Assembly: GCA_029098205.1 (NCBI GenBank)
Contig: JAQXNW010000006.1
Location: 1 to 35,697 of the forward strand
Source: Eubacteriales bacterium
GTDB lineage: Bacteria; Bacillota; Clostridia; Peptostreptococcales; Anaerovoracaceae
Direction: 5' to 3'
DNA length: 35,697 bases
Part shown: positions 33,110-35,697 of the stretch, one piece after another
Numbering within the stretch: position 1 is the first letter of the stretch
How the letters are laid out: each line of letters begins with the position of its first letter
Translations under genes and position numbers: made by a program
The notes under the pieces: model-generated
Databases searched by the model: none
What the model saw: the letters and a program-made list of their open reading frames with translations, nothing else
What the model was told of the DNA's origin: nothing

Positions 33110-33943
33110 ATGAAAAAATTTGGTTTGAAAAAGGTGCTGGCAGTCGGTGTTGCCTGCGTCATGGCTTTGTCCTTGGCAGCCTGCGGCAGCAGTTCGTCTT
33201 CCAGCTCGAGCAAGAAGGAATCGACGAAGTCCACGGGGAAGTCTTCCGGAACGCTGATTGTTGTTACGGAGCCTACGTTCCCGCCGTTTGATACAACGAA
33301 TGATCAGGGCGAGATCGATGGATTCGACCGCGATGTCATGGAAGCCATCGCGAAGGATCAGGGTCTCAAGCTGGAGTTTAAATCCATGGAGTTCCAGTCT
33401 CTGGTTCCGGCGATTCAGGCCGGAAATGCGGATATCATTGCGGCAGGCATGAACGCGGAAGATCCGGAGCGCCGCAAGAAGGTCGATTTTACGGATACGT
33501 ATTATGACAGCGGTCTGGTTGTCATGGTAAAGAACGATAACAATACGATTAAGAGCGAAGATGACCTTACGACCGATATGAAGGTGGCCAGCCAGACAGG
33601 TACCACCGGCGCGGATGAGGCGAACCGTCTTAAGGATGATGGCAAGATTCAGGAAGCGGTTATTCTGGACGGATTTGATACATGCATCCTGCAGCTCCAG
33701 AACGGCGATGTGGACGCGATTATCATCGACAAGCCGGTTGCTGAGAACTATATGAAGCAGCATGAAGGACAGTTCAAGACAGTTGGAAAAGTTCTGAATG
33801 CGGAGTCTTATGGATTCGCGGTCAAGAAAGGCAATACGAAGCTCCTCAAGAAACTGAACACAGGACTTAAGGACATTGTAAAGAGCGGAGAATTCAAGAA
33901 GCTCTGCGACAAATGGGGAATTGACTCTAAGTTTGATAAATAA
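33110..33943 (+). CDS. Polar amino acid ABC transporter substrate-binding lipoprotein
   Basis: Lipobox 'VMALSLAACGSSSSSSSSKKES'; 'LIVVTEPTFPPFDTTNDQGEIDGFDRDVMEAIAKDQGLKLEFKSMEFQSLVPAIQAGNADIIAAGM'. Confidence 0.95.
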   Translation: MKKFGLKKVLAVGVACVMALSLAACGSSSSSSSSKKESTKSTGKSSGTLIVVTEPTFPPFDTTNDQGEIDGFDRDVMEAIAKDQGLKLEFKSMEFQSLVPAIQAGNADIIAAGMNAEDPERRKKVDFTDTYYDSGLVVMVKNDNNTIKSEDDLTTDMKVASQTGTTGADEANRLKDDGKIQEAVILDGFDTCILQLQNGDVDAIIIDKPVAENYMKQHEGQFKTVGKVLNAESYGFAVKKGNTKLLKKLNTGLKDIVKSGEFKKLCDKWGIDSKFDK

Positions 33944-34066
33944 TGAAGGCGTGATACAGCCTGACAAGATGTCTTCGGGGCGCTGCCCCTGCTGTGACAG
34001 ATGCCCGGTCTTCCGTTTCAGGGAGGCAGGGCAAATTTTGTTATTATATAGTTAAGAGGAAAGAAC

Positions 34067-34738
34067 ATGGAATTTTTATCTGATCTCTGGCTCGGCATTA
34101 TAAATGCCTTCCAGGGAATTCCGATGACGCTTGCGGTCAGCGCGATCGCGGTGGCGGCGGGACTCCTCCTGGGATTTGTGGTCGCGTTTCTTCGAAAATC
34201 GAAATTCAAAGTGCTTCGCGCGATCGCGATGGTCTATGTCGACGTTCTCCGCGGTACTCCGCTTGTCGTTCAGGCTTTGATTATGGCGTACGGAGTTCCG
34301 GTGCTTTTGCAGCAGCAGGGGGTTGACTTTAAGTGGCCGTATCTTACGATCCCTGCTACGATTGTATGCAGCCTTAACAGCGCGGCGTATATGGGAGAAA
34401 TCGTTCGGGGCGGACTGGAAGCGGTCAGCAAGGGACAAAGGGAAGCTGCGGCGTCCCTTGGCATGACGCAGCGGCAGGCGAACCGGCTGATTGTGATCCC
34501 GCAGGCGGTTCGGATTATTCTTCCGCCACTCGGAAATGAGTTTATTACGATGATCAAGGAGACCGCCGTGCTGTCCTGGGTCGGCGTTGTGGAAACGATG
34601 CGTATGGGAACGCTTCTGGCTTCCAGAAGCTTCGATACATTTACCGCGTACGGCGGCGTTGCCATTGTGTATTTGATCTTTACCATTCCGCTTTCTAAGC
34701 TCGTGCTCTATCTTGAAAAACGAATGAAGCTTCAGTAG
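34067..34738 (+). CDS. Polar amino acid ABC transporter permease
   Basis: 'VDVLRGTPLVVQALIMAYG...SAAYMGEIVRGGLEAVSKGQREAAASLGMTQRQANRLIVIPQAVRIILPPLGNEFITMIKETAVLSWVGV'. Confidence 0.96.
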   Translation: MEFLSDLWLGIINAFQGIPMTLAVSAIAVAAGLLLGFVVAFLRKSKFKVLRAIAMVYVDVLRGTPLVVQALIMAYGVPVLLQQQGVDFKWPYLTIPATIVCSLNSAAYMGEIVRGGLEAVSKGQREAAASLGMTQRQANRLIVIPQAVRIILPPLGNEFITMIKETAVLSWVGVVETMRMGTLLASRSFDTFTAYGGVAIVYLIFTIPLSKLVLYLEKRMKLQ

Positions 34739-34747
34739 GAGGACGAC

Positions 34748-35473
34748 ATGATTGAAATTAAAGGCCTGCGAAAGGTTTATGAAAATACAGGATTAGAGGT
34801 TCTCAAAGGAATCGATGCGACGGTGAAGGATCAGGAAGTAGTCTGTGTGATCGGGCCGTCCGGCGGAGGAAAATCAACGTTCCTTCGGTGTCTTAACCGG
34901 CTGGAGGTGCCTACGGAGGGGGAAATTCTGATCGACGGCACGCCGATTACAGAGGATAACATCATCGGCGTCCGTGAAAAAATGGGAATGGTGTTCCAGA
35001 ACTTCAATCTTTTCCCGCATCTTAACGTACTTAATAATGTAACGGTCGCGCCGATCAACGTAAAAGGGCAGTCCCAGCAGGAAGCGGAGAAACATGCGAA
35101 GGAGCTTCTGGACCTGGTCGGACTGGGGGATAAGCTTCAGGAGATGCCTTATTCTTTGTCCGGCGGTCAGCAGCAGCGTGTGGCAATCGCCAGGGCACTT
35201 GCGATGGATCCGGAAATCATGCTGTTTGACGAGCCGACATCCGCGCTGGACCCGGAGATGGTGGGAGAAGTGTTGGATGTCATGAAGCATCTGGCAAAGC
35301 AGGGAATGACGATGATTATCGTTACCCATGAGATGCGTTTTGCGCATGATGTCGCGGACCGGATTTTCTTTATTGATGGCGGCGTGATTGCGGAGCAGGG
35401 CACGCCGGAAGAGGTTTTCGAACATCCGAAAAATGCGCGGACTGAGGAGTTTCTGCGCCGTGAAAATTATTAG
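34748..35473 (+). CDS. Polar amino acid ABC transporter ATP-binding protein
   Basis: '[20 protein letters not shown]' Walker A, '[44 protein letters not shown]' signature and Walker B. Confidence 0.97.
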
Positions 35474-35506: not shown

Positions 35507-35534
35507 TTGCAAAGAATTTCCGAAAGAGTATAAT
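35507..35534 (+). promoter_or_regulatory. Sigma-A promoter upstream of structured RNA candidate
   Basis: TTGCAA (35507-35512), 16-nt spacer, TATAAT (35529-35534). Confidence 0.7.
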
Positions 35535-35540
35535 AATGAA

Positions 35541-35697
35541 GTCGCCTGATGAGGGCGGCGCCGCGGAAGCGGCTGAACCTAGAAAAATCCATAGATTAGG
35601 AAACTAGTCGTCAAAGAGTTTCTCATTTAAGAGGAACAAAAAGACGAACACCATCAAGTAGATGGGTTCTTAGACAATTTCCGAAAACAGTAATTCA
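35541..35697 (+). ncRNA. Candidate structured non-coding RNA (5' part; truncated by window end)
   Basis: Consecutive hairpins without an evident ORF: GTCGCC-TGATGAG-GGCGGC; GCCGC-GGAA-GCGGC; CCT..AATC-CATA-GATT-AGG; TCGTC..GTTTCTC-ATTTAA-GAGGAAC..GACGA; CCATC-AAGTA-GATGG. Confidence 0.6.

What the first reader, a model, noticed from the sequence alone, without database searches (positions are those of the whole stretch)
35507..35697. Promoter followed by a dense chain of hairpins: probable structured non-coding RNA at the window edge
Seen: TTGCAA-16-TATAAT, then five local helices back to back, including one with a GGAA tetraloop (GCCGC-GGAA-GCGGC) and one two-tier arm (TCGTC...GTTTCTC-ATTTAA-GAGGAAC...GACGA, 5+7 bp). 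No ORF or good RBS is apparent in the visible part. The A-rich single-stranded joints between helices are typical of folded bacterial RNAs rather than simple attenuators. Inference: this is the 5' portion of a larger RNA, or a long leader of a gene beyond the window. I cannot assign it to a known class; it does not show the tmRNA, RNase P or T-box signatures I would expect. The raiA-motif, ROOL and similar large Firmicutes RNAs are classes worth testing.
Basis: partly seen in the sequence, partly recalled or inferred. Interest (0 to 1): 0.68.

Follow-up and report, generated by a model that had tools for sequence, protein, structure and literature searches.

The report
Ribosomal RNA operon promoter and leader
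The hairpin-rich RNA at the edge of the window is the ordinary start of a ribosomal RNA operon (its promoter and the precursor leader before 16S rRNA), cut off because the assembly broke at this repeated operon.

Summary
In detail: TTGCAA-16-TATAAT followed by a chain of stable hairpins (fold z = -4.7), with no Rfam family matching. The interpretation as an unassigned large non-coding RNA (ROOL, raiA or similar) is not. It is the promoter and 5' leader of pre-16S rRNA in an rrn operon.

The window is a whole MAG contig, and the feature lies at its 3' end. Two more near-identical copies also end at or near contig ends, each with different DNA upstream. The MAG has no 16S or 23S gene; its two 5S genes lie 22 bases from contig ends. 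In Eubacterium pyruvativorans i6 the last 25 bases of the window occur exactly, about 85 nt before the start of 16S. Five congeners and more than 20 other genomes of the family carry the same order: promoter, GC-rich hairpin(s), boxA-like GAACCTNGAAAACTNCATAG, a closing GGAAA/UUUCC helix around variable hairpins, then 16S. Complete congeners have three rrn operons, equal to the three copies here.

The leader presumably carries boxA antitermination and pre-16S folding and processing, as in other bacteria. Ordinary. The only mildly new point is a clade-specific leader fold absent from Rfam.

The parts
35507..35534 (+). rrn promoter: -35 TTGCAA, 16-nt spacer, -10 TATAAT
   Evidence: Sequence. Rrn promoters stand at the same place before the leaders of congeners. 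Copy C74 of the same genome has a different promoter (TTGACA) before the same RNA.
35541..35559 (+). Leader hairpin 1, just after the inferred transcription start (about 35541)
   Evidence: Fold. C74 has another sequence here (GTTCGCT-AGAG-AGCGGGC) that still pairs. A GTCGC...GCGGC-type hairpin stands at this place in many rrn leaders of the order.
35560..35573 (+). Leader hairpin 2, GCCGC-GGAA-GCGGC
   Evidence: Present in all three copies of this genome; absent or replaced in congeners.
35575..35594 (+). boxA-like element GAACCTAGAAAAATCCATAG
   Evidence: Counterpart GAAC[ACT]T[TA]GAAAAC[N2-3]CATAG is found in rrn leaders of five congeners and most family members examined, with 192-217 nt from it to 16S in the congeners. 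Order-level leaders carry CTTTGAAAACTgAACAG.
35599..35609 (+). 5' strand of the closing helix of the central leader domain (GGAAA CUA GUC)
35610..35645 (+). Central hairpin a (GTC, GTTTCTC-ATTTAA-GAGGAAC, GAC)
   Evidence: The sequence is replaced in congeners, but hairpins remain there.
35646..35669 (+). Central hairpin b (GAAC.CCATC-AAGTA-GATGG-GTTC)
35673..35682 (+). 3' strand of the closing helix (GAC AA UUUCC)
35673..35697 (+). Conserved GACAATTTCCGAAAACAGTAATTCA, identical upstream of 16S in Eubacterium pyruvativorans; the contig ends here, before the 16S gene

Best explanation
This is the promoter and pre-16S 5' leader of one of about three rRNA (rrn) operons in a Clostridia bacterium congeneric with Eubacterium pyruvativorans and E. 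minutum. Transcription starts near 35541. The nascent leader folds into hairpins, presents a boxA-like element to the Nus antitermination complex, and then forms a closed multi-hairpin domain. That domain precedes the 16S gene by about 85-120 nt and is removed when 16S matures. The 16S gene is missing from the window only because the assembly broke at the multi-copy operon. Shown here: identity, position, conservation and predicted structure. Inferred from known rrn leaders (for example PMC10250234): boxA antitermination, help in 30S folding and processing.
For: The window is contig C6 of the MAG and the feature is at its very 3' end. Two more 99%-identical copies are at C41:16010-16237 (contig of 16,314) and C74:7533-7650 (contig of 7,650), with different upstream DNA, and C74 has a different promoter. 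There is no 16S or 23S in the MAG, but two 5S genes lie 22 bases from contig ends (C70:23-139 of 7,173; C73:28285-28401 of 28,423), so the missing operon cores fit these gaps. In E. pyruvativorans i6 (G004 = NZ_FNBF01000019/20) the window's last 25 bases occur exactly in both rrn leaders, followed by AAGAGTTTGATCCTGGCTCAG. Congeners G004, G006, G008, G012 (= E. minutum CP016202) and G015 carry the same boxA-like element and TTTCC..ACAGTAAT motif at fixed places before 16S. G006, G008 and G012 have three rrn operons each. In all six species the domain after boxA folds with a closing GGAAA/UUUCC-type helix (z -3.3 to -5.2). Native strands pair better than strands swapped between species (14 of 10,000 permutations as good).
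Against: The 16S gene itself is not in the MAG, so the link in this very genome is by homology; the longest copy (C41) stops just short of where 16S should begin. The -35 TTGCAA is weaker than the TTGACA of the congeners. The swap test ignores relatedness and is modest. No transcript data were available.
Confidence: 0.985

Rival explanations
1. A free-standing large structured ncRNA (ROOL, raiA motif, OLE-like or an unknown class) starting at 35541.
For: Strong fold, promoter-like sequence directly upstream, no ORF.
Against: No Rfam match at gathering scores, and none of these classes even at E <= 10. Homologous leaders either run into 16S or stop at contig ends.
Confidence: 0.005
2. A mobile or repetitive element (group II intron, IStron, HEARO-like) whose near-identical copies break the assembly.
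For: Three near-identical copies at contig ends with different flanks.
Against: The copies share a promoter-proximal boundary and are orthologous to rrn leaders at fixed positions in relatives. No intron or ribozyme family matches. The copy number equals the rrn number of complete congeners.
Confidence: 0.005
3. A riboswitch or cis-regulatory leader of a protein gene beyond the window (for example a c-di-GMP-I aptamer).
For: A weak c-di-GMP-I-UAU hit, 17.6 bits, E = 0.23.
Against: The gathering score is 65.9 bits and the alignment breaks many pairs. Relatives have 16S, not a protein gene, downstream.
Confidence: 0.003

Closest known systems
Pre-16S rRNA leader of bacterial rrn operons (boxA leader, with leader hairpins hA/hB in E. 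coli; PMC10250234)
   Same: Promoter, leader hairpins, a boxA element and structured spacer directly before 16S, in several near-identical copies per genome.
   Different: Helix sequences and the closed GGAAA/UUUCC domain are specific to this clade; E. coli leaders have other helices. The leader-trailer helix was not examined here.
rrn leaders of Eubacterium pyruvativorans i6 (NZ_FNBF01000019/20) and E. minutum ATCC 700079 (CP016202)
   Same: Same order of elements; the 25-nt motif is identical in E. pyruvativorans.
   Different: Central hairpin sequences are replaced and hairpin 2 is absent in E. pyruvativorans.

Membership tests
rrn operon promoter and pre-16S leader | Lies directly upstream of a 16S rRNA gene | tested here: inconclusive
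   In this genome all three copies are cut by contig ends and no 16S is assembled. Orthologous leaders in five congeners do lead into 16S.
rrn operon promoter and pre-16S leader | boxA element in the leader | tested here: met
   GAACCTAGAAAAATCCATAG at 35575-35594 aligns in place with GAAC[ACT]TNGAAAACTNCATAG of relatives. Nus binding not testable.
rrn operon promoter and pre-16S leader | Several near-identical copies per genome, different upstream flanks | tested here: met
   Three copies, equal to the three rrn operons of G006, G008 and G012.
rrn operon promoter and pre-16S leader | Sigma-70 promoter just upstream | tested here: met
   TTGCAA-16-TATAAT; TTGACA-type promoters in C74 and relatives.
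rrn operon promoter and pre-16S leader | Leader-trailer helix enclosing 16S | not tested
   The 16S 3' trailer of this genome is not assembled, and the trailers of relatives were not examined.
ROOL / raiA / other large Firmicutes ncRNAs in Rfam 15 | Match to the covariance model | tested here: not met
   No match at gathering scores or at E <= 10.
c-di-GMP-I riboswitch (RF03168) | Match at or above the gathering score | tested here: not met
   17.6 bits against 65.9.

The most novel reading that the evidence does not exclude
The pre-16S leaders of this family share a clade-specific domain: boxA, then a GAAA/UUUC-type closing helix around two or more freely replaced hairpins, then (A)AACARTAAT. 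No Rfam model covers it; it may be a defined protein-binding or assembly-checkpoint element of 30S biogenesis in these Clostridia.
Probability: 0.2. Interest if true: 0.3.

Novelty: already known. Interest (0 to 1): 0.08.

Why it matters
It removes a false lead: a strong fold, a good promoter and no Rfam hit at a contig end can be the start of a broken rRNA operon. Rfam has a model for mature 16S, but nothing in it matched this leader. A check for multi-copy contig ends and absent 16S should precede any claim of a new large RNA in a draft genome.

Tried and rejected
A 17-nt motif scan of genome contigs mostly gave chance matches in unrelated phyla, but named G004 and G012 by their contig lengths. 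A first strand-pairing test with loose anchors was weak (520 of 10,000); with anchors on boxA it was 14 of 10,000, though at least one row in that run is still mis-anchored (L168), and the anchors were tightened after seeing the first result. The first MAFFT alignment (A1) used wrong coordinates for the relatives and was discarded. The ungapped comparison of the window and C41 copies was off by one base and is not used. GTTCTTAGACAA at 35666-35677 was considered as boxA and rejected, since relatives place boxA upstream of the central hairpins. The local hairpin GATTAG-GAAA-CTAGTC (35594-35609) from the minimum-energy fold of the whole leader conflicts with the closing helix and is not kept in relatives. 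Paper searches for rrn leaders in Firmicutes found little.

Full report
Observation. The promoter and helices are present as described. The 157-nt RNA from 35541 folds far better than shuffles (z = -4.71), has no ORF of 60 aa or more through it and matches no Rfam family.

Context. The window is the whole of contig C6 of a 196-contig MAG (1.67 Mb, 86% complete), and the feature abuts the contig's 3' end. The same sequence occurs twice more: at C41:16010-16237, 77 bases from that contig's end, and at C74:7533-7650, exactly at the end. Upstream DNA differs in each, and C74 uses a different promoter and a different but still pairing first hairpin. Such a multi-copy, contig-breaking repeat with a promoter suggests an rRNA operon. 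The MAG lacks 16S and 23S, yet has two 5S genes, each 22 bases from a contig end. That short-read MAGs miss multi-copy rRNA operons is documented (PMC7648391).

Identity. Complete congeners have three operons, as many as the copies here. Leaders of other genera of the family show a related pattern (GAACCTTGAAAACTNCATAG...CAATTTCT...AACAATAAT). Leaders across the order keep the promoter, often a GTCGC-type hairpin, and CTTTGAAAACTgAACAG.

Structure. Folding the segment after boxA gives, in each of six species, a closing helix GGAAA/UUUCC or its variant (GAAAUCU/AGAUUUC in G006; GAAAUU/AAUUUC in E. pyruvativorans) around two or three hairpins of otherwise unrelated sequence (z -3.3 to -5.2). Across 26 leaders the native strands pair better than strands swapped between species (mean score 13.0 against 11.8; 14 of 10,000 permutations). 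The test does not correct for relatedness, at least one row is mis-anchored, and it followed a weaker first version, so it is support and not proof.

Function. By homology this is the pre-16S leader. In E. coli boxA recruits the antitermination complex, and leader helices aid the fidelity and folding of the 30S subunit (PMC10250234). That this leader does the same is inferred, not shown.

Verdict. What may be new is only the description of a clade-specific leader fold.

Noticed in passing
L156:939 and 1301 (G012, E. minutum CP016202, near 1.743 Mb): Two copies of the rrn leader (boxA starts 362 nt apart) stand before one 16S gene, separated by a masked N run; either a duplicated promoter-leader or an assembly artefact.
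   Followed up: no
L181 and L184 (rrn leaders of G127 and G078): Leaders of two different genera contain a similar inserted hairpin, GACACCTAC...GTTAGGGGTTC, as if a small repeat element had entered the pre-16S leader.
   Followed up: no
window 33110-35473: An amino-acid-type ABC transporter operon (SBP_bac_3, BPD_transp_1, ABC_tran) ends about 33 bases before the rrn -35 box, so the rRNA operon follows it in the same direction.
   Followed up: partly
G000:C74:7470-7550 (L003:1440-1518): The third copy has a TTGACA-type promoter and different first hairpin arms that still pair, a within-genome compensatory change in rrn leader hairpin 1.
   Followed up: partly
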